A stretch of 64,000 nucleotides of DNA from a virus: IMG/VR virus record IMGVR_UViG_3300029319_008461, positions 16,845 to 80,844 of that record, one strand, 5' to 3'. This document shows positions 5,624 to 24,992 of this stretch, piece by piece. The notes under the pieces were generated by a model that had not been told where the DNA came from, did not search any database, and saw only the letters and a program-made list of their open reading frames with translations. The first letter of the stretch is position 1. Each line of letters begins with the position of its first letter. Made by a program: the position numbers and the translations under genes.

Positions 5624-5625
5624 TA

Positions 5626-6555: not shown

Positions 6556-7388
6556 GAGTTCTCATAACTGGACGGAACGGGTTTCTTGCAAGGGAGCTAT
6601 CCGATCGTCTTGACGATTTTGAGGTAACCTGTGTCGGTCGCCAAGAGGTGGACCTCACTAACTCTCATAATGTTGATTTATTTTTTGAAGATAAAACTTT
6701 TGATGCTGTTTTGCACACAGCCATTATTGGTGGACGTCGAGGACAACAAGATGAGTTTAAAGATTTTTCTGACAACGTATCAATGTTCAGTAACTTACTA
6801 AGACATAAAGATAAGTTTAACAAGTTTATAAACTTTTGTTCTGGTGCGGCCTTTGGAAGATGTGCTGACATATATGAGTGGCACGAAAACAGAATCCATT
6901 CTTGGCTGCCTGGCGGAGGCGACTATTATGGAATGTCAAAAAACATAATTGGACGAGAGTGCAATAAGCTGGATGGTTTTTATAATTTAAGATTGTTTGG
7001 ATGTTTCGGGTTTCATGAAGCAGAAAAAAGGTTTGTTAAATCAGCTTTGGAAAAAGCATTAGTTGGAGAACCAATAGTTATTCATCAGAATAAAATGATG
7101 GACTATATTTCTGCTGAAGATATCTGCACAGTGGTAAGACATTATCTTGTGAGTGATATTAAAAAAGAACTTCAGGACATTAATATTTGCTATGAGGACA
7201 AAACCACTCTGAGAGGTATTGCGGTAAAAATTGTAAACTTAACAAAATCAGAATCAGAGATAATAATAGAAGAGCCAGGATTCTCTGTATCATATACAGG
7301 CAACGCTGATAAGTTGAAAAGTCTTAATTTAAGCCTGCAAGGAATAGAAAAGGGACTCTTAGCTCTCTTGGAGAAATTAATTGGATAA
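6552..7388 (+). CDS. NAD(P)-dependent epimerase/reductase of nucleotide sugars
   Basis: This 278-aa extended short-chain dehydrogenase has the N-terminal Rossmann motif RVLITGRNGFLAREL (GxxGxxA) and the catalytic Tyr-x3-Lys in YYGMSKNIIG. Overall it resembles GDP-L-fucose synthase and RmlD-type reductases. It is therefore likely to reduce, or epimerise and reduce, a 4-keto-6-deoxy nucleotide sugar. Its ATG overlaps the panB stop by four bases. Lying between the TPP/PanB genes and the RfbH-like dehydratase, it could be the final reductase of a branched dideoxysugar, a YerF-like role. The exact substrate is not visible. Confidence 0.75.
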   Translation: MRVLITGRNGFLARELSDRLDDFEVTCVGRQEVDLTNSHNVDLFFEDKTFDAVLHTAIIGGRRGQQDEFKDFSDNVSMFSNLLRHKDKFNKFINFCSGAAFGRCADIYEWHENRIHSWLPGGGDYYGMSKNIIGRECNKLDGFYNLRLFGCFGFHEAEKRFVKSALEKALVGEPIVIHQNKMMDYISAEDICTVVRHYLVSDIKKELQDINICYEDKTTLRGIAVKIVNLTKSESEIIIEEPGFSVSYTGNADKLKSLNLSLQGIEKGLLALLEKLIG

Positions 7389-8724
7389 GCTTCAAAAAAT
7401 ACTTTCACTAGTCGAAGAATATGCTCAAGAAAACCTTTTAGATAAAAGCTGGGAACCTGGACAATGGGTTAATTATTCTGGACCTCATTTTAGCACTGAC
7501 GAGTTTCGGGCAGCCGTCGAGGCTTTGCTAGGTGGCTGGCTTGTGTTTGGAAAGAAGGCCAGAGTTTTTGAACAAACATTCCCGGAGCACTTAGGTAAAA
7601 ACTTTGGGATGTTAACAAACTCAGGAAGCTCAGCCAACTTGATAATGACTCAAGCTTTAACTAGTAAAAAAAGCTTTATGAAAAAGTATCATTTACCTAA
7701 GGGTAGTAAGATTATCACCCCAGTGGTTTGTTTCCCAACAACCTTGAATCCTATTATACAGACAGGATATGAACCAGTATTTGTAGACGTGGACTTGCCA
7801 TCTTTGAACTTAAATTTAGATCAGGTAGAAAAAATCCTTGAAGAGGATAGTTCAATCAGAGGTATTGTTTTTGCTCACGTTCTGGGAAATCCTCCTGATA
7901 TGGATAGGCTTATGCATTTAGTTGATAAGTATAAACTTATTTTCTTGGAGGATTCATGTGATGCCTTGGGTTCTTTTTATGATGATAAAAAACTAGGTTC
8001 CTTCGGGCACATGTCAAGCTGTTCATTTTACCCCGCTCATCATATGACTTTGGGAGAGGGCGGATTTGTAGCTACAGATGACCCAAGACTCAGAAGGGCG
8101 TTGGCCAGTTTTAGAGACTGGGGTCGTGCTTGTTATTGTAACGAGCAAAAACCTGGAGACGTCACTGCTGGAACAGCTTGCGGCAATAGGTTTAAGCCCT
8201 GGCTTAAATACGGCAAAGAAAGAATAAATTATGATCACCGTTATGTGTTCGATGAGATTGGTTTTAACTTGAAGCCGCTAGAGTTACAAGCAGCTATTGG
8301 ACTAGAACAACTACATAAGCTACCGGAGATGGATTCAGCCAGACGGGAAAACTTTCGATCTTTCACTAAAATATTTTCAAAATACGAGGAGTATTTTATG
8401 CTCCCGAGGGCTACAGATAAATCAGATCCAAATTGGTTTGGATATTTGTTGACAGTTAAAGAAGGTAGCGGGTTCAGTCGTGAGCAGTTTGTCCAGCATT
8501 TAGAGGACAACAAAATACAGACAAGATCTTATTTTGCAGGGAATTGTTTATATCATCCGGCTTATGTAGAGTTCGCTAGCAAATACGACAATCTTAGGGA
8601 CGAGTTTCCTAATGCTCACAAGGCCACAGTCGGATCTTTTTTTCTAGGAACCTTTATTGGTATAACAGAGCAAAAATTAAACTATATTGAGGGGGTTGTT
8701 GATGAGTTCTTCAAAAACCTATGA
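7381..8724 (+). CDS. rfbH: RfbH/E1-type PLP, iron-sulfur 3-dehydratase
   Basis: This 447-aa DegT/DnrJ-fold protein closely follows E1/RfbH, which removes the C3 hydroxyl of CDP-4-keto-6-deoxyglucose. The PLP Schiff-base lysine of ordinary aminotransferases is replaced by His220 in YPAHHMT, as in E1. The four iron-sulfur cysteines are present: Cys193, Cys251, Cys253 and Cys267, spaced C-X57-C-X1-C-X13-C. The first three spacings are those of E1; the last is six residues longer. Translation must start at the TTG at 7381: a GGAGAA site sits upstream and the next Met is far inside the fold. No E3-type reductase is encoded nearby, so electrons would have to come from elsewhere. Confidence 0.85.
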   Translation: MDKLQKILSLVEEYAQENLLDKSWEPGQWVNYSGPHFSTDEFRAAVEALLGGWLVFGKKARVFEQTFPEHLGKNFGMLTNSGSSANLIMTQALTSKKSFMKKYHLPKGSKIITPVVCFPTTLNPIIQTGYEPVFVDVDLPSLNLNLDQVEKILEEDSSIRGIVFAHVLGNPPDMDRLMHLVDKYKLIFLEDSCDALGSFYDDKKLGSFGHMSSCSFYPAHHMTLGEGGFVATDDPRLRRALASFRDWGRACYCNEQKPGDVTAGTACGNRFKPWLKYGKERINYDHRYVFDEIGFNLKPLELQAAIGLEQLHKLPEMDSARRENFRSFTKIFSKYEEYFMLPRATDKSDPNWFGYLLTVKEGSGFSREQFVQHLEDNKIQTRSYFAGNCLYHPAYVEFASKYDNLRDEFPNAHKATVGSFFLGTFIGITEQKLNYIEGVVDEFFKNL

Positions 8725-9679: not shown

Positions 9680-10633
9680 ATGAAACTAACATTTGATGAC
9701 ATCATAGACAAACATAAAGGAGAGACGTGCGTCATTTCTTTGCACGGCCCAAGCTTGGAGCCTTATATAGAAAAGATCCAAGAACTACAGAGAGATAACA
9801 AAATTACCAGATTCTCTGTCAATGAGTGGTTTGATTACTTTGAGGAAAAACCAGACTATTGGGTGGTATCAAATACAGAGTTTAATATAAGGGACTCTAT
9901 TCTTAATGAGAACATTTGGAAACTTAGAAAATATCCGGTCGATGTTTTCAACACATATAAAGTTCCGTTGTTCTATAATAAGGCGGCGGATCTCACTGAC
10001 CCCTCTTTTGTGGATGATAATTTAAAGTTTGATTATCTCCCGTATGACAACAAGCACTTCAAGGGGCATGGTTGCATTGAGATACTTAAAAACTTCAAAA
10101 ATTATTACGAAGAGAACAAAAATTTAAATTTTGAAATGTATGGCAACAACAAGCAAATGTGGCAGTTTCCTGACACAAAAAATGAAAACGTTAACGAGTT
10201 TTGTGCCCACGTCCACGCTGGACTAGCAGGCGGTTGGTCAAGGACAGGCCACTGTTGTCATCTTAAGGATGATAATCCAACACTACAAGAGAAACTACAA
10301 CAATATTCAGGACATGATCGCCATTGTGGAGTTGGACAAACTGTGGGGTTGTTTTGTGTGGCTTTTGCCATATTGATGGGGTTTAAAAAAATATACATTG
10401 TAGGGCTTGACTTAGATTATTCTTTGGGGTATGCTGAGGGGTACCCTGAAGACAAAAACTATTATGTCCCTAATGTTGCACAAGTTGGTCACTGGAGATA
10501 TGTGTACAAAGACTTTTTGACTGATGATATGAAAATTTTACGGGAAAGTGCTGCCCTAAAAGGCACAGAGATTATTAACCTAAACAAAGAAGCATGGTAT
10601 GATGAATTTACCAAAGGAGATTTAAAGGTATGA
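9680..10633 (+). CDS. Possible sialyltransferase-like or DUF115-like protein
   Basis: I do not recognise this 317-aa protein with certainty. The N-terminal third has a GPSL motif (VISLHGPSLEPYI) followed by FSVNEWFDYF. The C-terminal third has FAILMGFKKIYIVGLDLDYS. The order GPSL, a short loop, then a hydrophobic strand with a G(L/I)D turn is shared by GT42 sialyltransferases (Cst-type) and DUF115/Maf-type proteins. The gene lies directly before NeuB-like and NeuA-like genes and overlaps NeuB by four bases, so a nonulosonic-acid transferase is a reasonable guess. The middle region is Cys/His-rich (HCCHL, HDRHCG), which is not typical of either family. Confidence 0.4.
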   Translation: MKLTFDDIIDKHKGETCVISLHGPSLEPYIEKIQELQRDNKITRFSVNEWFDYFEEKPDYWVVSNTEFNIRDSILNENIWKLRKYPVDVFNTYKVPLFYNKAADLTDPSFVDDNLKFDYLPYDNKHFKGHGCIEILKNFKNYYEENKNLNFEMYGNNKQMWQFPDTKNENVNEFCAHVHAGLAGGWSRTGHCCHLKDDNPTLQEKLQQYSGHDRHCGVGQTVGLFCVAFAILMGFKKIYIVGLDLDYSLGYAEGYPEDKNYYVPNVAQVGHWRYVYKDFLTDDMKILRESAALKGTEIINLNKEAWYDEFTKGDLKV

Positions 10634-11466
10634 GTGTTTTTGTAATTGCAGAAATCGGTATTAACCACAACGGCAGCCTGGATATCGCTAAGCAGCTTAT
10701 TAGTGAGGCCGCAGCAGCAGGTTGTGATGCAGTTAAGTTCCAAAAAAGAACTATTGAAAAAGTTTATTCAAAGGAGGAGCTTGATAAGCCAAGAGAGAGC
10801 CCTTGGGGGACAACAAACAGAGAACAAAAGAATGGATTAGAATTTACCGAATCTGACTATGAGCAGATTGACGCTTACTGCAAAGAAAAGAATATTGAAT
10901 GGTTCGCATCTGCTTGGGATGTTGATAGTCAAATTTTCATGCGTCGGTTTAATTGTAAATACAATAAAGTTGCGTCGGCTATGCTTACACACAGAGAACT
11001 TCTAGAAGAAATTGCATCTGAAAAGAAACATACTTTTATTTCTACTGGAATGAGTACACTTGAACAAATTGATAAGGTAGTTGAAATTTTTAAAAGCCAC
11101 GACTGCTCTTTTGAACTTATGCATTGTAACAGCACCTACCCGATGCAACTTGAAGATGCAAATCTGCGTGTGATGCACACGCTGCAAGATAGGTACGGTT
11201 GTAATGTTGGATACAGTGGCCACGAAACAGGTATTATTATTAGTTGTGCTGCTGTTGCCATTGGTGCCTCATCTTTGGAAAGACACATTACTCTTGACCG
11301 AGCGATGTATGGATCAGATCAGTCTGCGTCCTTGGAGATCGTTGGACTTAAAAGAATGATGGATTATGTTAGGGATATCATCGCCTGTATGGGTTCTCCC
11401 GAAAAGAAGGTTATGGATACTGAAGTTTCTATCGCTGAGAAGCTACGAAAGGTAGATACTCTGTGA
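10630..11466 (+). CDS. neuB: NeuB-type nonulosonate synthase lacking the SAF domain
   Basis: NeuB enzymes condense phosphoenolpyruvate with an N-acyl-hexosamine to form sialic, legionaminic or related nine-carbon acids. This 278-aa protein shows the family TIM barrel: IAEIGINHNG at the N-terminus, AVKFQKRT, STGMSTLEQI, and the two metal-binding His regions GYSGHETG and LERHITLDR. Typical NeuB proteins have about 340-350 aa, with a C-terminal SAF (antifreeze-like) domain that reaches into the partner subunit. That domain is absent, and the following gene starts at the stop codon. The phage enzyme may accept a different substrate or work less tightly as a dimer. Confidence 0.85.
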   Translation: MSVFVIAEIGINHNGSLDIAKQLISEAAAAGCDAVKFQKRTIEKVYSKEELDKPRESPWGTTNREQKNGLEFTESDYEQIDAYCKEKNIEWFASAWDVDSQIFMRRFNCKYNKVASAMLTHRELLEEIASEKKHTFISTGMSTLEQIDKVVEIFKSHDCSFELMHCNSTYPMQLEDANLRVMHTLQDRYGCNVGYSGHETGIIISCAAVAIGASSLERHITLDRAMYGSDQSASLEIVGLKRMMDYVRDIIACMGSPEKKVMDTEVSIAEKLRKVDTL

Positions 11467-12203
11467 GTAGAATAAATGCCTTAATACCTGCAAGGGGCGG
11501 TAGTAAAGGTGTGCCCAAGAAGAATATTAAACTTCTTCACGGTCATCCGCTAATAGCTTATTCGATCATTGCTTGTCAACAATCAAAAATGATCGATAAA
11601 GTTATTGTATCTACAGATGATCAAGAAATTGCTAATGTGGCTTTGCAGTACGGGGCAGAAGTTCCATTCTTGAGGCCATCTGAATTAGCTGGCGACCGAT
11701 CTAGGGACGAGGAAGTGATACAACACTACTTTGATTCTCTAGGCGGGTCTGATATTGCTTATGTCAGGCCTACTACACCTCTAAGAGATCCAGAAGTAAT
11801 AGACGAAGAGATTAAAAGATATTTTCACACTAAGATACTTGTTTCGACTGGTGTAAGGTCAATGCATAAGTTGCCTGAATCTCCCCACAAGATGTTTCAA
11901 CTTGATAAGAACGGTTACTGTTGTGGTTTTTTTGAGGACTTCAAGGGAGAAAAAAATTATACAAACTTACCAAGACAAGTGTTTCCAGCAGCCTATCAAC
12001 CAAATGGTTATTTGGACATTGTAAAGAGAGTTACACTTCAAGATGGTGATGCGTTTGGCGAAACAGTCTTGCCTATAATCACTGATTTTGTTTTGGAGGT
12101 TGATACTGAATATGAGTTTGAACTTATAGATTATCATCTGGCCACAAGAGGTCATAAGTTGTTGGATAAATTAAATGAAGCAAAAAGTAAAAACGAATCA
12201 TAG
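11463..12203 (+). CDS. neuA: CMP-nonulosonate cytidylyltransferase (NeuA/PtmB-like)
   Basis: This 246-aa protein activates a nonulosonic acid with CTP. The signature ALIPARGGSKGVPKKNIK for CTP binding is at the N-terminus, and ELAGDRSRDEEV and YVRPTTPLRDPEVID match the conserved family segments. Length agrees with single-domain NeuA/PtmB enzymes. It uses a GTG start that overlaps the NeuB stop (GTGA), so the two proteins are coupled. Together they would give a CMP-activated sialic-, legionaminic- or pseudaminic-like sugar. Which one cannot be decided here because the upstream amino-sugar enzymes are not clearly present. Confidence 0.85.
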   Translation: MSRINALIPARGGSKGVPKKNIKLLHGHPLIAYSIIACQQSKMIDKVIVSTDDQEIANVALQYGAEVPFLRPSELAGDRSRDEEVIQHYFDSLGGSDIAYVRPTTPLRDPEVIDEEIKRYFHTKILVSTGVRSMHKLPESPHKMFQLDKNGYCCGFFEDFKGEKNYTNLPRQVFPAAYQPNGYLDIVKRVTLQDGDAFGETVLPIITDFVLEVDTEYEFELIDYHLATRGHKLLDKLNEAKSKNES

Positions 12204-15808: not shown

Positions 15809-16724
15809 GAAAATAAAAGTAAATCTATTTGATAGTTTAGCTCCTGATTTTTATGATGAGTATTGGGGCTTTCATAATTTTTCAAGCGAGTTTGAACCCA
15901 CCAAGGTTGAGTGGCTAAAACAAAATATTGGGATGGGTTATCCTGAGTTTGATGGTATTACAGTATTCACAGATAAAAACATAGTTGACCCTTGGGTTGA
16001 CAAAGTTAAATCAAAATACAAGGTTGCCTTTCTTGTTGAGTGTCGTGGTGTACACGACTGGGCCTACGAACAAATAAAGCGAGTTGAACATAAATTTGAT
16101 CGTATCTTTACTTTTGATGAAGAGTTGTTAGCAAGAAGTGATAAGTATGTGAAAAATCTGATTGGAACGTCAAGAGTTTCAAATGAGGATGCCGGTATTC
16201 ATGCAAAAAGTAAAATGCTATCAATGATCGCCTCCAAACAAGTTTTAACTCGTGGTCACAGATTGAGACACAAGGTAGCAGACGCCATTAAAGGAAGGTA
16301 TGAAGTTGATATGTGGGGAGGGGGATATAGACCCTTTGGAAAAAGTATATCTGGTAGGACCGCTGGGGCTATTAGAGAGGGAAAAAACGAACCTTTACAG
16401 GATTACAGATTCAGTATTACGATTATGAATTCAAGCGAAAATAACTATTTCACAGAAACTTTAGTAGATGTCTTTCGTCAAGGTACTATTCCAATTTTTT
16501 GGGGTTGTCCAAATATCGCAGAGTATTTTAATAAAGATGGTATCTTGCATTTTAACACAGGACAAGAACTATTTGACATACTAGACAATATCTCAGAGGA
16601 TCTCTACGAAAGCAAGCTTGAAGCAGTTAGGGAAAACTATGAACTAGCCAAACAATATGTCTCAATGGATGACACTTTCGCTACAAACTTAATAAACGAA
16701 TTTCCGGAGCTACTAGATGACTAG
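15801..16724 (+). CDS. GT10-type (fucosyltransferase-like) glycosyltransferase
   Basis: This 307-aa protein carries the C-terminal alpha-fucosyltransferase motif region. It reads YRFSITIMNSSENNYFTE, then LVDVFRQGTIPIFWGCPNIAEYF at about residues 205-245, matching the GDP-fucose site of GT10 enzymes. The N-terminal half is divergent. GT10 enzymes use GDP-L-fucose or close analogues. The Gmd, ColD-like and fucose-synthase-like genes downstream could supply GDP-fucose, GDP-colitose or a branched relative. The start is GTG 15801, overlapping the cupin gene. Confidence 0.75.
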   Translation: MTKKIKVNLFDSLAPDFYDEYWGFHNFSSEFEPTKVEWLKQNIGMGYPEFDGITVFTDKNIVDPWVDKVKSKYKVAFLVECRGVHDWAYEQIKRVEHKFDRIFTFDEELLARSDKYVKNLIGTSRVSNEDAGIHAKSKMLSMIASKQVLTRGHRLRHKVADAIKGRYEVDMWGGGYRPFGKSISGRTAGAIREGKNEPLQDYRFSITIMNSSENNYFTETLVDVFRQGTIPIFWGCPNIAEYFNKDGILHFNTGQELFDILDNISEDLYESKLEAVRENYELAKQYVSMDDTFATNLINEFPELLDD

Positions 16725-17115
16725 AAAATATTTACCAACACTTTCAGAGTTGATTGATAGATTATCTATCGCTCAACTTAAGGAGGTGTTTATCACTGAT
16801 CACAAAGAAGAGTATGCGCAAGAGATTAAAGATATCGTTCACGATATAGACTTGTGCCTAAAAGAGACAAAACATCTAAACGCAGAAGTTATTAGAGCCG
16901 TGGTCGTGTTATCTCAGATGAATCTTCACATTTGGCACAATGAATCAAATTATAGAAAAGGCATAAAGGACGGCAATAACTTGGAATTAACTCATGGTCT
17001 TAACGGTATCCGCAATACGGCCAAGAATAAAATTCAAGAGATTGCCGGTGGGCGAAAAGACTACAAAATAGATTGTCTGGCTGCGGAGTTCAAGGACTGG
17101 GATATTAGCTGGTAA
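16717..17115 (+). CDS. Small helical protein of unknown function in glycan cluster
   Basis: I do not recognise this 132-aa protein. It is mostly alpha-helical by residue pattern, opens with LPTLSELIDRLSIAQLKEVF, and has a charged centre and the pattern GLNGIRNTAKNKIQEIAGG near the C-terminus. There is no signal peptide or membrane segment. It overlaps the GT10-like gene by eight bases and is followed after two bases by the RmlC-like gene, so it belongs to the same operon. It could be an accessory subunit of a transferase; nothing in the sequence proves this. Confidence 0.6.
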   Translation: MTRKYLPTLSELIDRLSIAQLKEVFITDHKEEYAQEIKDIVHDIDLCLKETKHLNAEVIRAVVVLSQMNLHIWHNESNYRKGIKDGNNLELTHGLNGIRNTAKNKIQEIAGGRKDYKIDCLAAEFKDWDISW

Positions 17116-17117
17116 CA

Positions 17118-17600
17118 ATGTTTTTCCCAGAGGTTAAGATTTTTGAAGCTGATATGTTTAGGGAATATCGTGGAGATATTTGGACAACGTATAAGAAAAA
17201 AACATTCCCAGTAGACTTAGATTTTGTACACGACAAGTTCTCATCCTCCAGGAGAAACGTAATCCGAGGAATACATGGAGACTATAAAACTTGGAAACTA
17301 GTAAGTTGTCTGCAAGGTGAACTGTATTTCGTTGTAGTTGATAACAGAAAAGAATCACAAAATTACCTTAAGTGGGATTGTATGATGCTTGATGACAAAG
17401 ACCGTAGACAGGTTTTGTTACCCCCTGGGTTTGGAAATGGATTTTGTGTGATGAGCGACTCTGCTGTATTTAGTTACAAGTTGGCCTATGAAGGTGAATA
17501 CTCGGACGTCGATCAGCAATTTACCTTAAAATGGAATGATACTCATGTTAACATAAACTGGCCAATAGATAGCCCAATATTACAAGCGAGAGATAAATGA
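17118..17600 (+). CDS. RmlC-like dTDP-sugar 3,5-epimerase family protein
   Basis: This 160-aa cupin resembles dTDP-4-dehydrorhamnose 3,5-epimerase. The catalytic His segment is kept as NVIRGIHGD, and the PPGFGNGFCVMSD segment corresponds to the family PxGFAHGF motif, with the His changed to Asn. Usual RmlC enzymes have about 180 aa. The change of a conserved His and the shorter length suggest a relative that catalyses single epimerisation (3- or 5-only) or isomerisation, as in FdtA/RmlC-like branches. No RmlA or RmlD is present here. It lies between the GT10 and E1-alpha genes. Confidence 0.7.
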   Translation: MFFPEVKIFEADMFREYRGDIWTTYKKKTFPVDLDFVHDKFSSSRRNVIRGIHGDYKTWKLVSCLQGELYFVVVDNRKESQNYLKWDCMMLDDKDRRQVLLPPGFGNGFCVMSDSAVFSYKLAYEGEYSDVDQQFTLKWNDTHVNINWPIDSPILQARDK

Positions 17601-18223
17601 ATATACCTGACCACCTAGAAAAAGTTAGAGAGGTATCTTTAACCCCCCAGGAGTTGATTGATTTTGAAACAAAAGTCAAAGAAACATATGAGGCTGGAAA
17701 AATTAAAGGACCAATCCATCTAGCCAAGAATAATGAAAATGAACTGATAGAAATATTCCAGTACATAAGCCCCGATGATTGGGTTTTTGTTCCCTGGAGA
17801 AATCACTATCACGCTCTTTTGCACGGCGTTGACCCTGACAAATTGTTTAATTCAATTGTAGAAGGTAGAAGTATGGGCACAAATAATTTAAAGCCAAACT
17901 TTTATGCCTCCTCGATTGTTGGTGGTATCATACCTCTTGCACTGGGGGTTGCTTTGGGGATCAAACAGAGAGGTAAAAACAATCGTGTTTGGTGTTTTGT
18001 TGGTGACATGACTATGGAGACTGGTGTGTTCCATGAGGCTTACAAATATAGTAAGAACTTTGATCTACCCATCCAGTGGGTTGTTGAGGATAATGATATG
18101 AGTGTTCACACCCCAACCGATATGGCCTGGGGTAAAAAACAAGAGGTACCTGATGGTGTAATTTATTATAGATATGAAATGGAATATCCTCATCACGGAA
18201 CAGGAAAGTGGGTAAATTTTTAA
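17597..18223 (+). CDS. TPP enzyme E1-alpha / transketolase N-terminal half
   Basis: This 208-aa protein is the thiamine-diphosphate-binding half of a two-subunit E1 enzyme. The cofactor motif begins at Gly136-Asp137 (VGDMTMETG) and ends at Asn166 (VEDND), the expected spacing of about 30 residues. Pyruvate dehydrogenase E1-alpha is usually over 320 aa, so this is a minimal version. No E2 or E3 gene is present, so it is not an acyl-CoA-forming dehydrogenase here. Paired alpha and beta E1-like proteins are known to attach two-carbon units to sugars in avilamycin biosynthesis (AviB1/AviB2, eurekanate). The neighbouring ColD-like dehydratase makes such a role attractive. Confidence 0.75.
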   Translation: MNIPDHLEKVREVSLTPQELIDFETKVKETYEAGKIKGPIHLAKNNENELIEIFQYISPDDWVFVPWRNHYHALLHGVDPDKLFNSIVEGRSMGTNNLKPNFYASSIVGGIIPLALGVALGIKQRGKNNRVWCFVGDMTMETGVFHEAYKYSKNFDLPIQWVVEDNDMSVHTPTDMAWGKKQEVPDGVIYYRYEMEYPHHGTGKWVNF

Positions 18224-18759
18224 TGAAATATAAAAGCGAACTTATCAGATCTATGAACTGGCTTGCTAAGAAGAGAGATACAGTGTTTCTTGGGCAAGCT
18301 TGTAAAGTTAGTGGTCACGCTATTTCTAGCACCTTGGTAGAAGTTCCTGATGAAAAAAGAATTGAACTACCTGTATTTGAGGAAACTCAAATGGGCATCT
18401 CAACAGGTATGGCTCTGGAAGGGTATGTGCCAATTACAATGTATCCTCGATTTGATTTTTTTATTCTAGCTTGCAATCAATTAGTGAATCATCTTGATAA
18501 AATGAGAGATATGTCAAAAGGGGAAATGACTCCTCGTGTTATTATAAGAGTAGCTGTCGGAACAAAGAATCCTATTGATGCGGGACCGCAGCATACTCAA
18601 GATCACACAGAGGCTTTTCGCAGAATGTTAACCGAAGTGAACGTTGTGGATCTTTTTGAGCCAGAGGATATCTTCGCAGCTTTTAAAGAGGCATATGAGA
18701 GGCCTGATTCAAAATCAACACTATTAATTGAACACGGAGAATTTTATGGGACAAAATAG
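18223..18759 (+). CDS. TPP enzyme E1-beta / transketolase pyrimidine domain
   Basis: This 178-aa protein is the partner of the preceding gene. It contains the pyrimidine-binding domain with the cofactor-activating glutamate in LPVFEETQMGIS (Glu53 or Glu54) and MALEGYVPITMYPRF. It ends before the C-terminal transketolase domain found in full E1-beta proteins of about 320 aa. The start is ATG 18223, sharing one base with the upstream TAA (TAATG), which favours equal synthesis of the two subunits. The two proteins together should form a small alpha2-beta2 TPP enzyme. The proposed sugar-branching activity is inference from context. Confidence 0.75.
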   Translation: MKYKSELIRSMNWLAKKRDTVFLGQACKVSGHAISSTLVEVPDEKRIELPVFEETQMGISTGMALEGYVPITMYPRFDFFILACNQLVNHLDKMRDMSKGEMTPRVIIRVAVGTKNPIDAGPQHTQDHTEAFRRMLTEVNVVDLFEPEDIFAAFKEAYERPDSKSTLLIEHGEFYGTK

Positions 18760-19921
18760 TTTTTCTTGGCCTTTGATAAATGATAATATAACAGAGGAAG
18801 ATAAGGCTGCTTTGATTAAGTGGTTGCAAGAACCTAACGTTAGATTTACTCAATCAAAGTATGTAAAAAAATTTGAACAAGCTTGGTCTGAATGGCTTGG
18901 AGTTAAATATACAGTCTTTGTAAACTCTGGTGCGTCTGCCAACTACATTATGACTTCAATTATGAAGGAGCTTAAAGGTGGCGGCGAAGTGATTGTACCG
19001 CCAATTGGCTGGGTCTCTGATATAGCTCCAGTGGTCAATCTTGGGATGACTCCTGTTTTTGTGGATGTTGATCCTGAGAGTTTGGCCATTACTGCTGAGA
19101 ACATTGAAAATGCAATCACAGACAAGACAGTTGGGATTGTGTTAGTTCATGCATTGGGGTTCAATGGCTTGACTGACAAACTTGTAGAACTCGCAGAAAA
19201 ACACAACCTAATTTTGATTGAGGATTGCTGCGAGTCTCACGGCGCTACGTTCGATGGACAAAAGATTGGAACTGTTGGCGATATGTCAAATTTTTCTTTC
19301 TACTTTGGACACCATATCACAACAGTCGAAGGTGGGGTTGTTTGCACAAACGATAAGAATATCTATGAGCTAGCGAAGATGTTTAGGTCACACGGAATGA
19401 TTAGGGAAGCTGGGGATGAGGTATATGATGCATACACAGAAAAATATCCAGACTTAAACCCACTGTTTCTTTTTGCCGTCCCTGGATATAATCTAAGGAA
19501 TACAGAGTTCAATGCTGTGTTGGGACTTGAGCAATTAGGAAGGTTAGATAGAGCAGCTACGATTAGGGCAGAAAATTTTAAGACCTGGATTGATAACTTA
19601 GATACTAACAAGTTTCAAACAAGTTATCTTGAAGAAGGTAACAGTAGCTTTGCACTGCCACTAATTCTGAGAGAAAAAGATAAAGATTTGTTTGAAAGAG
19701 TCTGTTCTGTTTTGCGGCAAGAAAGAGTAGAGTATCGCATTGGAACCGCTGGCGGTGGCAACCAAGCTAGGCAACCTTATCTAGAAAAGTACGATCATAG
19801 GATTGTGGGTAACCTAGAGATCTCAGATCACATACATGATTTTGGACTTTACATTGGTAACCATACCGAACTTGAAAAAGAAACTATTATTAAATTGTGT
19901 GAGGTTATAAATGACTGTTGA
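18746..19921 (+). CDS. ColD-type PLP-dependent nucleotide-sugar 3-dehydratase
   Basis: This 391-aa DegT/DnrJ-fold protein carries SFYFGHHITTVEGG, with His189 where aminotransferases have the Schiff-base Lys. That substitution marks ColD, the GDP-4-keto-6-deoxymannose 3-dehydratase of colitose biosynthesis (His188 in ColD). Other fold motifs are FVNSGASANYIM and LIEDCCESHGAT. Unlike the RfbH-like protein at 7381 it has no C-x-C cluster after the His, so it should not need iron-sulfur. The Gmd gene at 22543 could provide its substrate. ATG 18746 has a GGAGA site just upstream; a TTG at 18728 is unlikely. Confidence 0.85.
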   Translation: MGQNSFSWPLINDNITEEDKAALIKWLQEPNVRFTQSKYVKKFEQAWSEWLGVKYTVFVNSGASANYIMTSIMKELKGGGEVIVPPIGWVSDIAPVVNLGMTPVFVDVDPESLAITAENIENAITDKTVGIVLVHALGFNGLTDKLVELAEKHNLILIEDCCESHGATFDGQKIGTVGDMSNFSFYFGHHITTVEGGVVCTNDKNIYELAKMFRSHGMIREAGDEVYDAYTEKYPDLNPLFLFAVPGYNLRNTEFNAVLGLEQLGRLDRAATIRAENFKTWIDNLDTNKFQTSYLEEGNSSFALPLILREKDKDLFERVCSVLRQERVEYRIGTAGGGNQARQPYLEKYDHRIVGNLEISDHIHDFGLYIGNHTELEKETIIKLCEVINDC

Positions 19922-20888
19922 TTTTAAAAACCAAAGTGTTTTAGTTACTGGCGGGACTGGGATGATAGGCCGCCAACTTGTTGATCTGTTGGTAGAGAGA
20001 GGAGCTAAGGTATATGTTGTATCTCTTGACCCTCCGAGGGGACTGCCTGAGGGTGTGATGTACAAGCTTGCAGATCTTACAGACTTCTCTGCTTGTCAGG
20101 AAGTTTGTGAAGGCATGGATTATGTTTTCAATTTGGTGGGCGTTAAGGGTTCCCCAAAGATGTGCAAGGAACAGCCAGCAGACTTTATGGTTCCGATGCT
20201 CCAGTTCAATACCAATATGATGGAAGCAGCAAGGCGTGCAGGAGTAAAGTGGTATTTGTACACTAGTAGTGTGGGTGTTTATCATCCAGCGGAGGTTTTT
20301 AAAGAAGATGATGTTTGGTCAACTTTTCCGTCGGACAACGATAGGTTTGCTGGCTGGGCGAAAAGAATTGGAGAACTGCAAGCAGAAGCGTATAGTATCC
20401 AGTATGGTTGGGATTGTGTTTCGATCGTAAGGCCCGCAAACGTTTACGGACCATATGATAACTTTGACCCAGAGAATGCAATGGTCATCCCTTCGCTGAT
20501 TCGCAAAGCGTTTGAAAATGATAAACTGGAAGTTTGGGGAGATGGCTCTCCGATTAGAGATTTTATCCACTCCAGAGATGTAGCCTTGGGTATGCTTCAC
20601 ATGGTAGACAACAAAGTGACAAAACCTGTCAACCTTGGTAGCGGTGAAGGGATCGCAATTAAGCAGATTGTGGATATCGTTGTTGACAAATGTCCTAAGG
20701 ATCTTGATGTAGTCTGGCAAACAGACAAGCCAACTGGCGACAAAAAAAGAATCCTTGATTCTTCCCGTGCAAAAGAAGTAGGGTTTCAGACAACAATCAG
20801 CCTCGAAGAGGGTATTCAGGAAACGATCGAATGGTTTGAAGAAAACAGGAGTATGATTGATGACAGGCATAATGCCTTTAGGAAATAG
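19911..20888 (+). CDS. NAD(P)-dependent epimerase/reductase with missing catalytic Tyr
   Basis: This 325-aa extended SDR has a good cofactor motif (LVTGGTGMIGRQLVDLL) and the downstream substrate segments RPANVYGPYDNFD and DGSPIRDFIHSRDVA. At the catalytic site it reads FAGWAKRIGELQ, so Lys151 is present but the residue four positions before it is Ala147 instead of Tyr. It resembles GDP-fucose-synthase/ColC-type proteins. It may still act if a shifted residue takes the role, or it may be a specialised epimerase. It overlaps the ColD-like stop by eleven bases, so it probably works on that product. Confidence 0.7.
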   Translation: MTVDFKNQSVLVTGGTGMIGRQLVDLLVERGAKVYVVSLDPPRGLPEGVMYKLADLTDFSACQEVCEGMDYVFNLVGVKGSPKMCKEQPADFMVPMLQFNTNMMEAARRAGVKWYLYTSSVGVYHPAEVFKEDDVWSTFPSDNDRFAGWAKRIGELQAEAYSIQYGWDCVSIVRPANVYGPYDNFDPENAMVIPSLIRKAFENDKLEVWGDGSPIRDFIHSRDVALGMLHMVDNKVTKPVNLGSGEGIAIKQIVDIVVDKCPKDLDVVWQTDKPTGDKKRILDSSRAKEVGFQTTISLEEGIQETIEWFEENRSMIDDRHNAFRK

Positions 20889-21594
20889 TGTACTTGTTAC
20901 AGGTGGTAACAGTGGCCTTGGTAAATACATTGCATCCAACATTAATTGTGTTGCGCTAACCAGAGAAAACGCTGAATCTGTCTTTAAAAGACACAACCAC
21001 TTTGACTTGATTATACACTGTGCGTTTAATGCCTCAAAGAAAACCAATGATTACTACAAAGTTTTACAAGACAATATTTTCTTAACAAAGCGTTTGTGTT
21101 CATTGTCTCACAACAAATTTGTATTCTTATCGTCAATTGATGTTTACCGAGAAGAGGATAGTCTTTATAAAACAACAAAATTAATGGCAGAGTCTATTGT
21201 TAAAGAAGAAGCGACAAACCCATTAATTGTTCGGACAAGTGCCATTGTTGGCCCAACAATGAGAACTAATAGTCTCTTAAGAATACTGGATGACGATAGT
21301 CCGGACTTATCCTTGTCTGAAAATTCAACGTTTAACTATGTTCTACAAAGTGATATACTGTCTATGATACAGGTGTCTGCAAAGAACAAATACTCTGGTA
21401 TTATAGACTTTGTGGCATCAAAAAATATAAGACTTAAAGACCTGGCAACTCATTTTTCTAAGACTGTAAATTTTGGAGACTACTTTTATGAAACACCTAT
21501 TATATCAAACAGGCATCTTCAAGAAAAATTCCCAACAGCTTGGTATACATCACTAGGAAATATTGAAAGATTTATGAAGGAAAGAACCAAATGA
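20860..21594 (+). CDS. NAD(P)-dependent sugar reductase, RmlD-like SDR
   Basis: This short extended SDR of 244 aa has the cofactor motif SVLVTGGNSGLGKYIASN, the segment FVFLSSIDVYREEDSLY with the catalytic Ser, and Tyr-x3-Lys in YKTTKLMAESIV. It is smaller than most nucleotide-sugar epimerases (about 300 aa) and similar in size to reductases that reduce a 4-keto group. ATG 20860 follows an AGGAG site and overlaps the previous gene; ATG 20872 is the alternative and removes only four residues. It could reduce the product of the ColD-like and E1-alpha/beta steps. Confidence 0.7.
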   Translation: MTGIMPLGNSVLVTGGNSGLGKYIASNINCVALTRENAESVFKRHNHFDLIIHCAFNASKKTNDYYKVLQDNIFLTKRLCSLSHNKFVFLSSIDVYREEDSLYKTTKLMAESIVKEEATNPLIVRTSAIVGPTMRTNSLLRILDDDSPDLSLSENSTFNYVLQSDILSMIQVSAKNKYSGIIDFVASKNIRLKDLATHFSKTVNFGDYFYETPIISNRHLQEKFPTAWYTSLGNIERFMKERTK

Positions 21595-22550
21595 AAAAAA
21601 TTCTTTTGTGCGGTGCCACTGGGTTTATTGGTAAGAACTTGTTAGAGCACTTCTCCAGCAGAGGGAATTATAGTATTCGAGCGATATATCACAATAAACT
21701 TCCAGACATTGAGCCGAGCGAACATCCTAATGTTGAGTTTATTTTTGCTGATTTAAACAATAAGGAAGATGTAGACAGAGTAATGGAGGGCGTAAACATT
21801 GTTCTCCAGTTTGCAGCCACAACTTCTGGGGCCAAAGATATTACAACAAAGCCGTTCATTCACGTTACAGATAATGCAGTTATGAACTCTTTGTTGTTAC
21901 GATCTGCCTATGAGAATAATGTTGAACATTTTGTTTTCCCGAGTTGCACGGTGATGTACCAGCCGAGTGAAGAGGCTCTATCTGAGGACGATTTCTCTGG
22001 AGAAGACGAAATATACCCAAAATACTTTGGTGTGGGTAATACAAAAGTTTATATTGAAAAGATGTGCGACTTCTACTCTAGGCTTGGAAGAACAAAACAC
22101 ACAGTTATTAGACACTCTAATATATACGGACCTCATGACAAGTACGATCTTGAGCGCAGTCATGTCTTTGGCGCAACCGTAACTAAAGTTATGACTGCAA
22201 AAGATAAAGTTGTTATGTGGGGGACCGGAGAGGAAAAGAGAGATCTTCTACACGTTGATGATTTGTGCAGGTTTGTTGAATTAGCTTTAAAGAACCAGAA
22301 GAAAGAATATGAGTTATTCAACGTTGGCCTGGGTCAAGCGGTTCCGGTTCGTGACCTTGTTCAGAAAATTATCAACGCTTCAGGTAAGAGGCTAAAGATT
22401 GAATCAGATTTAACTAAACCAACTATTAAAACTAGTTTATACTTGGATTGGAAAAAAGCGTTTACTACGTTAGGTTGGTGCCCCGAGATAACTCTTGATA
22501 AGGGGATAGAGAAAACTTTGAAGTGGTATAAGGAAAATATAGATGTCTAA
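21591..22550 (+). CDS. NAD(P)-dependent epimerase, GDP-fucose-synthase-like
   Basis: This 319-aa extended SDR begins KKILLCGATGFIGKNLLEHF (GxxGxxG cofactor site) and has FVFPSCTVMYQPSEEAL, RHSNIYGPHDKYD and EEKRDLLHVDDLC in family order. The active-site region reads YFGVGNTKVYIEKM; the residue four before Lys152 is Val148, so the usual Tyr-x3-Lys spacing is not seen and Tyr145 or Tyr154 may substitute. Its position just before Gmd suggests a role on GDP-4-keto-6-deoxymannose or a later derivative. It overlaps the genes on both sides by four and eight bases. Confidence 0.7.
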   Translation: MKKILLCGATGFIGKNLLEHFSSRGNYSIRAIYHNKLPDIEPSEHPNVEFIFADLNNKEDVDRVMEGVNIVLQFAATTSGAKDITTKPFIHVTDNAVMNSLLLRSAYENNVEHFVFPSCTVMYQPSEEALSEDDFSGEDEIYPKYFGVGNTKVYIEKMCDFYSRLGRTKHTVIRHSNIYGPHDKYDLERSHVFGATVTKVMTAKDKVVMWGTGEEKRDLLHVDDLCRFVELALKNQKKEYELFNVGLGQAVPVRDLVQKIINASGKRLKIESDLTKPTIKTSLYLDWKKAFTTLGWCPEITLDKGIEKTLKWYKENIDV

Positions 22551-23553
22551 AAATGTCTTTATCACTGGTGTTACGGGAATGGTCGGCTCTCACTTAGCCG
22601 ACTTTCTTTTAGAGAATACAGATTGGAAAATTTATGGGTTCTGTAGGTGGAATGATAATTTTGAAAATATACAGCACTTATTTCCAAGAATAAACACAAA
22701 AGACAGGGTGCAGTTAATTTATGGTGACTTAAATGATTTCCCGTCTCTCATGACCGCTGTTGAGGAGTCAGCGCCTGATTATGTTTTTCACCTAGCGGCC
22801 CAGAGTTATCCTCAGACTAGTTTTGTGGCTCCTTTGGAGACTCTTGAGACAAATATCCTTGGCACTGCAAAACTTTTGGAAGCCATTAATAAATCACCGT
22901 ATGATCCTGTGATACATGTATGCGCTAGTTCTGAGGTCTTTGGAAGGGTGCCAAAAGAATATTTACCAATTAATGAAGAGGTCACGTTTCACCCCGCCTC
23001 TCCATATGCTATTTCTAAAGTGGGGACTGACCTAATCGGTAGGTACTATGCCGAAGCTTATGGTATGACTGTGATGACAACAAGGATGTTTACTCACACA
23101 GGACCAAGAAGAGGTGATGTTTTTGCAGAGTCAACTTTTGCAAAACAGATTGCTATGATTGAGTCTGGAAAACTCCCTCCTGTTATCAAGGTTGGAAATT
23201 TACAGTCACTAAGAACTTGGTCTGATGTCCGAGATGCGGTTAGAGCGTATTATTTGCTTGTAACTCACAACCCAACAGCCGGAGAGTATTATAATATTGG
23301 CGGCACTTACAGTTGTACAGTGGAGGATATGTTAAATTATCTCATCAGCCAATCAACAGTTAAGAATATAAAAGTTGAAACGGACCCCGAGAGGCTCCGA
23401 CCAATTGATGCAGATTTGCAGGTCCCTGATACGGCCAAGTTTAAAAGCCACACTGGATGGGAACCAACGATACCTTTTGAGGAAACAATGACTGACTTAC
23501 TGAACTACTGGAGAGAAAAGGTTCAGGGCGACAGGGAGTTCCTATCTAGATAA
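22543..23553 (+). CDS. gmd: GDP-mannose 4,6-dehydratase (Gmd)
   Basis: This 336-aa extended SDR matches Gmd. It has FITGVTGMVGSHLADFL at the N-terminus, CASSEVFG with the Ser-Ser-Glu triad, and Tyr155-x3-Lys159 in PYAISKVG. TRMFTHTGPRRGDVF and LQSLRTWSDVRDAV, the NADP and GDP-mannose contacts of the family, follow. It converts GDP-D-mannose to GDP-4-keto-6-deoxy-D-mannose, the entry point to GDP-fucose, GDP-colitose, GDP-perosamine and related sugars. It most likely feeds the ColD-like, E1-alpha/beta and epimerase genes upstream in this operon and, through them, the GT10-like transferase. Confidence 0.85.
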   Translation: MSKNVFITGVTGMVGSHLADFLLENTDWKIYGFCRWNDNFENIQHLFPRINTKDRVQLIYGDLNDFPSLMTAVEESAPDYVFHLAAQSYPQTSFVAPLETLETNILGTAKLLEAINKSPYDPVIHVCASSEVFGRVPKEYLPINEEVTFHPASPYAISKVGTDLIGRYYAEAYGMTVMTTRMFTHTGPRRGDVFAESTFAKQIAMIESGKLPPVIKVGNLQSLRTWSDVRDAVRAYYLLVTHNPTAGEYYNIGGTYSCTVEDMLNYLISQSTVKNIKVETDPERLRPIDADLQVPDTAKFKSHTGWEPTIPFEETMTDLLNYWREKVQGDREFLSR

Positions 23554-24296
23554 TGTCTTCTAAAGTTTTAGTCATAGGCGAAAGCTGCAAGGATGTTTTT
23601 AATTACGGTAACTGTGATCGCTTGTGTCCTGACGCCCCGGTTCCTGTTTTCAACGGGACGGCAACTACAGTATCCGACGGCATGGCAATGAATGTCTTAC
23701 ACAACATTAAATCACTTGGAGTTGAGTGTGACATTATAACTAATAGCAATTGGCAACTGATTAAAAAAAGTAGGTACATTGATAACAAAACAAACCAGAT
23801 GCTTTTACGAATTGATGAAAACGATGAGGTGATAGACGAGCTTGACCTGTCTTTACTTGAAAAGAATATAAAAAACTACGGTGCGGTTATTATATCTGAT
23901 TATTGCAAGGGATATCTCTCTGAAGAAATTATGGCAAAGATATCTAAAATGCACGATAAGGTTTTTTTAGATACCAAAAAACTATTAGGCGATTGGTGTG
24001 ACGATATGGCATACATCAAGATAAACTATTATGAGCATGCCAGAACCAAACATCTACTAAAGAAAAGTTTATACGATCAGCTTATAATAACTCTTGGCTC
24101 CAATGGGTGTGAACACCGTGGCAAAACTTATCCCGTAGAGAAGGTAGAGATAAAAGACTCTTCAGGCGCTGGCGATACATTTATAGCAGGACTTGTGGCC
24201 GAGTATTTGAAAAATTATAGCATAGATGATGCAATACATTTTGCTAACCAATGTGCCACAAAAGTTGTTCAAAAGCGAGGTGTAAGTATAGTATGA
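23553..24296 (+). CDS. Compact PfkB-family kinase, HldE1/RfaE1-like
   Basis: This 247-aa protein resembles the kinase half of HldE, which phosphorylates D-glycero-D-manno-heptose-7-phosphate at C1. It keeps the N-terminal VLVIGESCKDVF strand, the RLCPDAPVPVF heptose-kinase segment and the anion-hole motif DSSGAGDTF with catalytic Asp208. The family usually has about 310-330 residues. Here the region between VLHNIKSLGVE and LIKKSRYID is shortened by roughly 50 residues, where the lid and a GxDxxG segment would be. The next gene is the nucleotidyltransferase half, coupled by an ATGA overlap. A heptose phosphate substrate is likely but not proven. Confidence 0.75.
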   Translation: MSSKVLVIGESCKDVFNYGNCDRLCPDAPVPVFNGTATTVSDGMAMNVLHNIKSLGVECDIITNSNWQLIKKSRYIDNKTNQMLLRIDENDEVIDELDLSLLEKNIKNYGAVIISDYCKGYLSEEIMAKISKMHDKVFLDTKKLLGDWCDDMAYIKINYYEHARTKHLLKKSLYDQLIITLGSNGCEHRGKTYPVEKVEIKDSSGAGDTFIAGLVAEYLKNYSIDDAIHFANQCATKVVQKRGVSIV

Positions 24297-24691
24297 AGAT
24301 TGTGTGGACAAATGGTTGTTTTGATGTTTTGCATCGTGGACATATTGAATTGTTTAAATATGCGAGATCATTAGGCGATAAACTTATTGTTGGTCTTGAT
24401 ACAGATGAGAAAGTCAAAGCTGCTAAGGGCGATGATCGGCCATTTAACACTCTAGAAGATAGAGAGTTTTTAGTAAGATCGATAAGATATGTTGATGATA
24501 CAATTTCATTTTCATCAAAAAGTGATTTAGAAAGCTTAATAAAATCCATAAAGCCTGATATTCTTGTTGTAGGATCAGATTGGGAAGGAAAATATGTCGT
24601 TGGCTCACAATATGCAAAAGAACTAAAGTTTTTTGATCGTATTGGTGAATATTCAACGACTAAAGTTTTAAAAAATGCTAATCTACGTTGA
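24293..24691 (+). CDS. Cytidylyltransferase-like nucleotidyltransferase, HldE2/RfaE2-like
   Basis: This 132-aa protein is the nucleotidyltransferase half of HldE. It contains WTNGCFDVLHRGH with the HxGH motif (His14 and His17) and LIVGLDTDEKVKA. RPFNTLEDRE and ILVVGSDWEGKYVVGS complete the core. It should activate a heptose-1-phosphate (ADP- or GDP-linked) or a glycerol-phosphate-like compound. The true start is ATG 24293, four bases before the kinase stop; longer upstream extensions lie within the kinase gene. In many bacteria the two domains are fused; here they are separate and in different frames. Confidence 0.8.
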   Translation: MKIVWTNGCFDVLHRGHIELFKYARSLGDKLIVGLDTDEKVKAAKGDDRPFNTLEDREFLVRSIRYVDDTISFSSKSDLESLIKSIKPDILVVGSDWEGKYVVGSQYAKELKFFDRIGEYSTTKVLKNANLR

Positions 24692-24992
24692 CATAGACGA
24701 TACAATTTGCACTTACGAGGGAGAGCGTCACTATCCAGACGCCATCCCAATTATGGAAAGAATACAAAAAATTAATGACCTTTATGACGAAGGTCATCAA
24801 ATAGTTTATTGGACAGCTAGGGGTGGCACTACAGGGATTGACTGGACGGAGCTAACCAACCAACAATTGAAAGATTGGGGTGTGAAGTGCCATGAGATTA
24901 AGATGTGGAAGCCACCTTACGATTTGTTCATATGCGATAAAGCCATAAACACTTTAGAATATTTTAAGGAGAAAAAAAGTGAAATTATCTAA
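24675..24992 (+). CDS. Small HAD-superfamily phosphatase-like protein
   Basis: This 105-aa HAD-type protein has motif I in YVDIDDTICTYEG (nucleophile Asp6, acid Asp8) and motif II as VYWTARGG. LFICDKA near the C-terminus is the likely motif IV region. It lacks a cap domain and matches the small hydrolases found in capsule and surface-sugar loci. Following the split HldE pair, it could remove a phosphate in a heptose pathway (a GmhB-like role), although GmhB is larger. It overlaps the nucleotidyltransferase gene by 17 bases and marks the end of the sugar cluster. Confidence 0.7.
   Translation: MLIYVDIDDTICTYEGERHYPDAIPIMERIQKINDLYDEGHQIVYWTARGGTTGIDWTELTNQQLKDWGVKCHEIKMWKPPYDLFICDKAINTLEYFKEKKSEII

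What the first reader, a model, noticed from the sequence alone, without database searches (positions are those of the whole stretch)
17597..23553. Second 3-dehydratase plus TPP module: ColD with a minimal split E1-alpha/E1-beta
A ColD-type dehydratase (His189 for Lys) directly follows two small proteins that together form a TPP E1 enzyme without E2, E3 or the C-terminal transketolase domain. Gmd and three epimerase/reductases complete the block. AviB1/AviB2, E1-like pairs, attach a two-carbon unit to a sugar in avilamycin biosynthesis. The repeat of the same logic (PLP 3-dehydratase + TPP enzyme + reductase) by non-homologous TPP proteins in one operon suggests two different branched deoxysugars, one CDP- or dTDP-linked and one GDP-linked.
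Basis: partly seen in the sequence, partly recalled or inferred. Interest (0 to 1): 0.85.

Follow-up and report, generated by a model that had tools for sequence, protein, structure and literature searches.

The report
Phage mini-enzyme pair branching GDP-heptoses
This marine phage carries a gene block that probably builds a rare branched seven-carbon-based sugar, using a stripped-down relative of the pyruvate dehydrogenase E1 enzyme that related phages repeatedly swap for another enzyme pair of the same kind, always together with one matching partner gene.

Summary
Observation confirmed: a PF00676 protein (208 aa) and a Transket_pyr protein (183 aa), with no C-terminal domain and no E2/E3 in the record, directly precede a ColD-type dehydratase (His for Lys), three SDRs and a 4,6-dehydratase. 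The window is a marine myophage, not a bacterium. Corrected: the "Gmd" and RmlC-like proteins match Campylobacter GDP-heptose enzymes, not GDP-mannose enzymes, so the block resembles the C. jejuni GDP-3,6-dideoxyheptose pathway. The refutation test failed: E1α-E1β-ColD is conserved in phages and in Verrucomicrobiota/Acidimicrobiales operons. Of 35 non-redundant viral ColD loci, 31 carry a thiamine-diphosphate (ThDP) pair: 21 mini-E1, 8 a non-orthologous full-length E1 pair, 2 split transketolase, never mini and full together. On ColD, dehydratase and epimerase trees, mini/full changes 10-11 times (about random); on the tree of SDR1, the gene after ColD, once. SDR1 therefore travels with the ThDP pair and probably handles its product. 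Best reading: the pair transfers an acyl unit (probably from pyruvate) to C4 of a GDP-dideoxy-4-ketoheptose, a YerE/AviB-like logic with a new minimal, swappable catalyst. Fused homologues (phrog_34187, unknown function) sit with a Zn-alcohol dehydrogenase and a heptose-type kinase in cyanophages. Chemistry untested.

The parts
17118..17600 (+). RmlC-like sugar epimerase (probable GDP-4-keto-deoxyheptose C3/C5- or C5-epimerase)
   Evidence: PDB best hits are Campylobacter GDP-4-keto-heptose 3-/3,5-epimerases, 162-168 bits, against 93 for dTDP RmlC; directly upstream of E1α in 20 of 41 NR viral loci
17597..18223 (+). mini-E1 alpha: ThDP diphosphate-binding (PP) domain, 208 aa
   Evidence: PF00676 5.7e-15; PDH E1α best in PDB; GD..N motif and His70, His199 conserved in 190-198 of 198 homologues
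18208..18759 (+). mini-E1 beta: ThDP pyrimidine-binding (Pyr) domain with catalytic Glu58, 183 aa, no C-terminal domain
   Evidence: PF02779 2.2e-10, no PF02780; PDH E1β best in PDB, Glu58 and His129 align with hPDH βGlu59 and βHis128; Glu58 188/188, Arg81 187/189, His95 187/189, His129 188/189
18728..19921 (+). ColD-type PLP/PMP 3-dehydratase (likely start 18746), His in place of the PLP Lys
   Evidence: ColD 2gms 197 bits, His aligns with ColD His188; His kept in all DegT neighbours examined
19911..20888 (+). SDR1: GDP-fucose-synthase-like SDR, partner of the ThDP pair
   Evidence: Fcl-like 116 bits; tracks ThDP type perfectly over 51 loci; canonical YxxxK Tyr displaced...FAGWAK
20857..21594 (+). 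SDR2: short SDR-like protein found only in mini-E1 loci
   Evidence: PF01370 7.6e-7; 24/63 mini-type loci, 0/17 full-type; directly after E1β in L054/L055
21591..22550 (+). SDR3: second GDP-fucose-synthase-like SDR
   Evidence: PF01370, Fcl-like 93 bits
22543..23553 (+).
23553..24296 (+). PfkB kinase, RfaE/HldE domain I-like, short form
   Evidence: rfaE_dom_I 118 bits, below its cut-off of 345; kinase beside the E1 pair in many loci
24251..24691 (+). nucleotidyltransferase, RfaE/HldE domain II-like
   Evidence: rfaE_dom_II 122 bits, below its cut-off of 181.5
24675..24992 (+). small HAD-like protein (putative phosphatase)
   Evidence: sequence motif only; no Pfam hit

Best explanation
The block makes a branched, deoxygenated GDP-heptose for a glycan. 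A GDP-heptose 4,6-dehydratase gives GDP-6-deoxy-4-ketoheptose; the ColD-type enzyme removes the C3 hydroxyl; the RmlC-like enzyme probably sets C5. The two small proteins form one ThDP enzyme, E1α giving the diphosphate-binding domain and E1β the pyrimidine-binding domain with the catalytic Glu. It decarboxylates a 2-oxo acid, most likely pyruvate, and adds the acyl carbanion to the 4-keto group, leaving a C4 acyl branch (a nine-carbon sugar if the donor is pyruvate). SDR1, and perhaps SDR2, then acts on that product. Shown: homology and catalytic residues, conserved order, mutual exclusion and repeated swapping with a full-length E1 pair, co-inheritance with SDR1. Inferred: heptose acceptor, position C4, pyruvate, order of steps, SDR1's reaction.
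For: E1-type, not transketolase-type, by profile and tree (mini clade SH-aLRT 98, apart from canonical E1, the full-length pair and split transketolase). Catalytic residues kept in about 190 homologues. AF2 model of a fused homologue confident (pLDDT 91.7, pTM 0.93); nearest PDB folds are transketolase/DXS-class ThDP enzymes. Neighbours match the characterised C. jejuni HS:5/HS:11 GDP-3,6-dideoxyheptose enzymes (PMC10440746). E1α-E1β-ColD in Verrucomicrobiota (15 of 146 relatives carry the pair, most of the fetched loci with ColD) and Acidimicrobiales, next to HddA/HddC-like genes. 31 of 35 NR viral ColD loci carry a ThDP pair; mini and full E1 never together (Fisher p 1.3e-4). Mini/full changes: ColD tree 10, dehydratase 10, RmlC 11 (shuffled about 12), SDR1 tree 1 with support 96. 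SDR1 identity 88.8% within type, 65.6% between types at similar ColD identity, though ColD lies between SDR1 and the pair; RmlC, dehydratase and kinase show no such effect. Precedents: YerE adds acetyl to a 4-keto-3,6-dideoxy sugar; the PDH-like pairs AviB1/AviB2 and Plm8/Plm9 add a C2 unit to deoxysugars (PMC4425429, PMC4802897).
Against: No activity or product is known. The GDP-heptose reading rests on sequence similarity. Homologues occur without ColD: 20 of 41 NR split loci in the E1-anchored survey had none within range, 9 of the GDP-heptose-dehydratase loci without ColD carry mini-E1, and the fused clade sits with Zn-ADH and a kinase, so 3-deoxygenation is not required for the whole family. 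SDR1 lacks the canonical catalytic Tyr in most mini-type loci, so 'ketoreductase' is unsure. No HddC-type guanylyltransferase (PF00483) was found in the record, so the source of GDP-heptose is open. Co-inheritance of ThDP type and SDR1 shows a functional link, not its chemistry.
Confidence: 0.55

Rival explanations
1. The pair is a reduced transketolase-like enzyme that supplies a ketose phosphate such as sedoheptulose 7-phosphate (for example from hydroxypyruvate plus ribose 5-phosphate) for the heptose pathway.
For: In Verrucomicrobiota, Acidimicrobiales and Omnitrophota operons the pair sits next to or near an HddA-like heptose kinase, and in the fused clade 21 of 22 NR viral loci have an RfaE-like kinase. 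Two NR ColD loci have a split transketolase instead. Nearest folds are transketolase/DXS.
Against: Sequence affinity is to 2-oxoacid E1, not transketolase. Several loci without ColD carry mini-E1 and a split transketolase side by side, so one does not simply replace the other. Swapping tracks SDR1, a gene expected to act late, and not the kinase or the dehydratase. A PfkB kinase is found in only 14 of 41 NR split viral loci.
Confidence: 0.18
2. The pair is a carboligase, but on a different acceptor: it extends or branches another aldehyde or ketone (the product handled by SDR1/SDR2 or by Zn-ADH), and the link with ColD only means that both sugars, or two parts of one residue, belong to the same glycan.
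For: Fused homologues pair with Zn-ADH in 21 of 22 NR viral loci without ColD; E1α-E1β-SDR2 stands alone in L054/L055; deep homologues sit with radical SAM genes in Nanoarchaeota and Desulfobacterales.
Against: Direct adjacency of E1β and ColD across phages and bacterial phyla, and mutual exclusion with the full-length E1 pair in the same slot beside ColD.
Confidence: 0.17
3. One reading: a GDP-mannose-derived branched sugar (GDP-4-keto-3,6-dideoxymannose as acceptor).
For: ColD and Gmd of E. coli act on GDP-mannose derivatives; the ColD-like protein is nearest E. coli ColD among solved structures, where no heptose C3-dehydratase appears under that name.
Against: Dehydratase 374 bits to the GDP-heptose enzyme against about 144; epimerase 168 against 93; heptose-type kinase and nucleotidyltransferase in the block; HddA/HddC in bacterial relatives.
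Confidence: 0.06
4. The pair is catalytically dead or a vestigial passenger.
For: Very short subunits; the GDG motif reads GDM in the split clade.
Against: Catalytic Glu, His and Mg ligands nearly invariant in about 190 divergent homologues, a fused form persists in many phages, and swapping with an intact full-length pair is recurrent.
Confidence: 0.04

Closest known systems
C. jejuni HS:5/HS:11 GDP-3,6-dideoxyheptose pathway (PMC10440746)
   Same: 4,6-dehydratase, PLP C3-dehydratase, RmlC-like C5-epimerase and a reductase: the same enzyme set acting on a GDP-heptose
   Different: The published four-enzyme pathway has no ThDP enzyme; here a ThDP pair and extra SDRs are in the block, and it is phage-encoded
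YerE / yersiniose (ThDP flavoprotein, acetolactate-synthase type)
   Same: ThDP acyl transfer to a 4-keto-3,6-dideoxy sugar, after a PLP/PMP 3-dehydratase
   Different: CDP-hexose, single-chain AHAS-fold enzyme. The window's other module (3788-8724) is of this kind; the pair studied here is E1-type
AviB1/AviB2, Pau11/Pau12 and Plm8/Plm9, EvdU5/EvdS3 (PDH-E1-like pairs)
   Same: E1α/E1β pair in a deoxysugar cluster, proposed or supported genetically to add a pyruvate-derived C2 branch; ketoreduction follows in paulomycin
   Different: Full length (Pau11 325 aa, Pau12 345 aa) against 208 and 183 aa; actinomycete antibiotic clusters on TDP/UDP sugars or on the attached sugar
Pyruvate dehydrogenase E1 (human 1ni4)
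   Same: Best solved relatives of both subunits, with aligned catalytic residues
   Different: About 150 aa shorter in each subunit, lacking the C-terminal domain of β; no E2/E3 in the record
Split (two-gene) transketolase
   Same: Two-gene ThDP enzyme, found in the same slot in a few loci
   Different: Separate branch (support 100); has Transketolase_C; co-occurs with mini-E1 in several loci

Membership tests
2-oxoacid dehydrogenase E1 (αβ type) | E1_dh and Transket_pyr domains with ThDP/Mg motif and catalytic Glu/His | tested here: met
2-oxoacid dehydrogenase E1 (αβ type) | C-terminal Transketolase_C domain and E2/E3 partners | tested here: not met
   no PF02780, PF00198 or PF02852 in the record; the record may be a fragment. 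Filed as a relative, not as a PDH-complex E1
AviB1/AviB2-type C2-branching pair | E1-like pair in a deoxysugar cluster | tested here: met
AviB1/AviB2-type C2-branching pair | sequence orthology with AviB1/AviB2 | not tested
   AviB sequences were not at hand; lengths differ strongly
AviB1/AviB2-type C2-branching pair | pyruvate-dependent acyl transfer to a sugar | not testable with these tools
   needs enzymology
ColD-type 3-dehydratase | DegT fold with His in place of the PLP Lys | tested here: met
ColD-type 3-dehydratase | C3 deoxygenation of a GDP-4-keto-6-deoxy sugar | not testable with these tools
   activity not assayable here
GDP-heptose 4,6-dehydratase (DmhA type) | closer to GDP-heptose than to GDP-mannose 4,6-dehydratases | tested here: met
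   374 against about 144 bits
Transketolase | Transketolase_N domain | tested here: not met
   no PF00456 hit in E1α, whose best is PF00676; separate branch on the tree
phrog_34187 (unknown function) | profile match over both halves | tested here: met
   E1α 1.1e-52 to positions 2-200, E1β 5.7e-31 to 237-404 of 405

The most novel reading that the evidence does not exclude
A previously unrecognised two-domain ThDP carboligase family, common in aquatic phages, installs C4 acyl branches on GDP-dideoxyheptoses. Phages exchange it, with a matched SDR, for a non-orthologous E1 pair, as interchangeable cassettes that change the branch on a shared sugar backbone, perhaps for surface-glycan variation of virion or host.
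Probability: 0.4. Interest if true: 0.85.

Novelty: new variant of a known kind. Interest (0 to 1): 0.74.

Why it matters
Branched heptose derivatives made by a ThDP step on a GDP-sugar were not found in the papers searched here. The block predicts a product and gives a phage family of unknown function (phrog_34187) a testable reaction. The minimal PP plus Pyr architecture, without C-terminal domain or E2, would be a compact catalyst for making tertiary alcohols on sugars. The repeated swapping of two unrelated E1 pairs, tied to one SDR, is a natural experiment that points to the partner enzyme and suggests that phages diversify glycans by cassette exchange.

Tried and rejected
Reading the dehydratase as GDP-mannose Gmd: rejected on PDB bit scores. 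Simple displacement of transketolase: rejected because mini-E1 and split transketolase coexist in several loci. RmlC co-varying with ThDP type, suggested by single pairs, was not borne out by the permutation test. Paper searches for phage mini-E1, or for thiamine enzymes with dideoxyheptoses, gave nothing relevant. The four ColD loci without a ThDP pair may be cut off: in some architectures E1α lies several kb downstream. One Pfam call failed for wrong coordinates. AviB sequences could not be obtained for direct comparison.
Full report
1. What is there. The window is bases 16845-80844 of an 80,844-base virus record. Downstream lie phage structural genes (baseplate wedge PHROGs; nearest cultured baseplate relatives are Microcystis and Flavobacterium phages at about 30% identity); bases 1-25,000 are a dense sugar-biosynthesis island. 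The finding's block is as described: RmlC-like 17118, E1α 17597 (208 aa), E1β 18208 (183 aa), ColD-like 18728, SDR1 19911, SDR2 20857, SDR3 21591, dehydratase 22543, then a PfkB kinase, a nucleotidyltransferase and a small HAD-like protein.

2. The pair is a minimal E1. E1α matches E1_dh over positions 6-173 of 300 and E1β matches Transket_pyr without Transketolase_C. No E2, E3 or Transketolase_C was found in the record. Profiles of the two families find PDH E1α (73.6 bits) and E1β (59.8 bits) as best solved relatives; split transketolase and DXS score under 30 bits for α. Over 198 α and 189 β homologues the ThDP/Mg residues and catalytic residues are nearly invariant: α Asp137 190/198, Asn166 193/198, His70 193/198, His199 198/198; β Glu58 188/188, Arg81 187/189, His95 187/189, His129 188/189. 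A fused homologue was modelled with high confidence (pLDDT 91.7, pTM 0.93) and its nearest solved folds are transketolases and DXS, the single-chain members of the same superfamily.

3. Distribution. PHROG 34187 (405 aa, unknown function) is the fused form. It occurs in cyanophages S-SM2 and P-TIM68, where it is annotated 'transketolase central region-containing protein'; a 735-kb phage has the two halves in separate genes. On a tree the mini-E1α form one branch (SH-aLRT 98) apart from canonical E1α, from the full-length pair described below and from split transketolase; most of the fused proteins form one sub-branch (99) (quick search, long branches flagged).

4. The sugar is probably a heptose. 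[quoted passage not shown] The RmlC-like protein matches Campylobacter GDP-4-ketoheptose epimerases (162-168 bits) against 93 for dTDP-RmlC. The ColD-like protein matches ColD (197 bits) with the diagnostic His. C. jejuni HS:5 and HS:11 make GDP-3,6-dideoxyheptoses with this set: 4,6-dehydratase, PLP C3-dehydratase, C5-epimerase, C4-reductase (PMC10440746). Kinase and nucleotidyltransferase are RfaE/HldE-like but below cut-off. Bacterial relatives have HddA- and HddC-like genes in their place. No HddC-type enzyme was found in this record, so whether phage or host makes GDP-heptose is open.

5. Is the link to ColD real? In 41 non-redundant split-type viral loci, a GDP-fucose-synthase-like SDR is near in 39, RmlC in 29 (directly upstream of E1α in 20), the dehydratase in 27, ColD in 21 (directly downstream of E1β in 13) and a PfkB kinase in 14. 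In Verrucomicrobiota the order HddC-HddA-E1α-E1β-ColD, followed by a B12-binding radical-SAM protein, recurs; Acidimicrobiales have HddA-E1α-E1β-ColD. From the other side, 31 of 35 NR (80%) viral ColD loci carry a ThDP pair: 21 mini-E1, 8 a full-length E1 pair (about 277 and 301 aa, with Transketolase_C), 2 a split transketolase; never mini and full together (Fisher p 1.3e-4). Related loci are not independent, so the p value is a guide only.

6. Swapping and the partner. On a tree of 87 ColD proteins the mini/full state needs 11 changes, at least 9 for the label 'full' forced by well-supported branches. In L031 (mini) and L242 (full) ColD is 95%, dehydratase 88% and kinase 83% identical, while the ThDP pair is replaced. 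Over 51 NR loci with all genes, mini/full needs 10 changes on the ColD tree, 10 on the dehydratase tree and 11 on the RmlC tree, close to shuffled labels (about 12), but 1 on the SDR1 tree (support 96). At ColD identity of 80% or more, SDR1 is 88.8% identical (median) within a type and 65.6% between types; dehydratase (87.5/87.2), kinase (73.0/74.1) and RmlC (78.3/75.9) show little or nothing; shuffles reaching the observed value were 0, 825, 412 and 194 of 1000 for SDR1, dehydratase, kinase and RmlC. ColD lies between the pair and SDR1, so plain adjacency does not explain it. The full-length pair brings a DJ-1-like protein (16/17), a cupin (16/17) and a HAD-like protein (12/17), none of them seen in 63 mini loci; SDR2 occurs in 24/63 mini loci and 0/17 full loci.

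7. Mechanism. The simplest account is that both E1 pairs act on the common GDP-4-ketosugar and SDR1 acts on their product. This is the logic of yersiniose (3-dehydratase, YerE, reduction) and of the PDH-like pairs AviB1/AviB2 and Plm8/Plm9 (PMC4425429, PMC4802897, PMC4753412); the everninomicin pair EvdU5/EvdS3 is a hypothesis of its authors (PMC10338323). Inferred, not shown: heptose acceptor, C4, pyruvate, order of RmlC and ThDP steps. A weakness: SDR1 has its YxxxK tyrosine displaced (FAGWAK in most mini types, W[YF]GGWAK in full types), so its reaction may not be a standard reduction.

8. Rivals. A role in supplying sedoheptulose 7-phosphate is suggested by heptose kinases beside the pair and by occasional split transketolases in the slot. 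It is weakened by E1-type affinity, by loci that carry mini-E1 and split transketolase side by side, and by co-inheritance with SDR1 rather than with the kinase. The fused clade, with Zn-ADH and an RfaE-like kinase in 21 of 22 NR viral loci each, may do something else; my claim concerns the split clade.

9. Limits. Gene assignment used small home-made profiles. Host and glycan are unknown.

Noticed in passing
window 3788-6555: AHAS-like ThDP enzyme directly followed by PanB (ketopantoate hydroxymethyltransferase); in L069/L070 the order is E1α-E1β-PanB-AHAS. PanB may supply an unusual 2-oxo acid donor for these ThDP enzymes.
   Followed up: partly
window 16717-17115: 132-aa protein without Pfam match, among the most conserved genes of the block (65-97% identity in most related loci), in 46 loci.
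   Followed up: no
window 19911-20888 and 21591-22550: SDR1 has the YxxxK catalytic Tyr displaced (FAGWAK), and SDR3 seems to as well (VGNTK), despite GDP-fucose-synthase-like sequences.
   Followed up: partly
L233:6100-7005 and other full-length E1β: The full-length E1β that replaces mini-E1β reads SMAD/SMSD where PDH E1β has the catalytic Glu, in all 39 copies: Asp for Glu.
   Followed up: partly
L021:12352-13920, L304:6086-7606, L334, L248: B12-binding radical-SAM protein (506-522 aa) recurs beside the ThDP-ColD genes in Verrucomicrobiota and phages, perhaps a C-methyltransferase for the same sugar.
   Followed up: partly
L022, L025, L026, L029, L005: Deep mini-E1 homologues in Nanoarchaeota, Desulfobacterales and a 735-kb phage sit beside radical SAM/SPASM genes instead of sugar enzymes.
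   Followed up: no
L080, L090, L306, L317, L343, L371: Loci without ColD that carry mini-E1 and a split transketolase side by side, each with an SDR: two ThDP systems in one cluster.
   Followed up: partly
window 10630-12203: NeuB-like and NeuA-like genes in the same island, suggesting a nonulosonic acid too.
   Followed up: no
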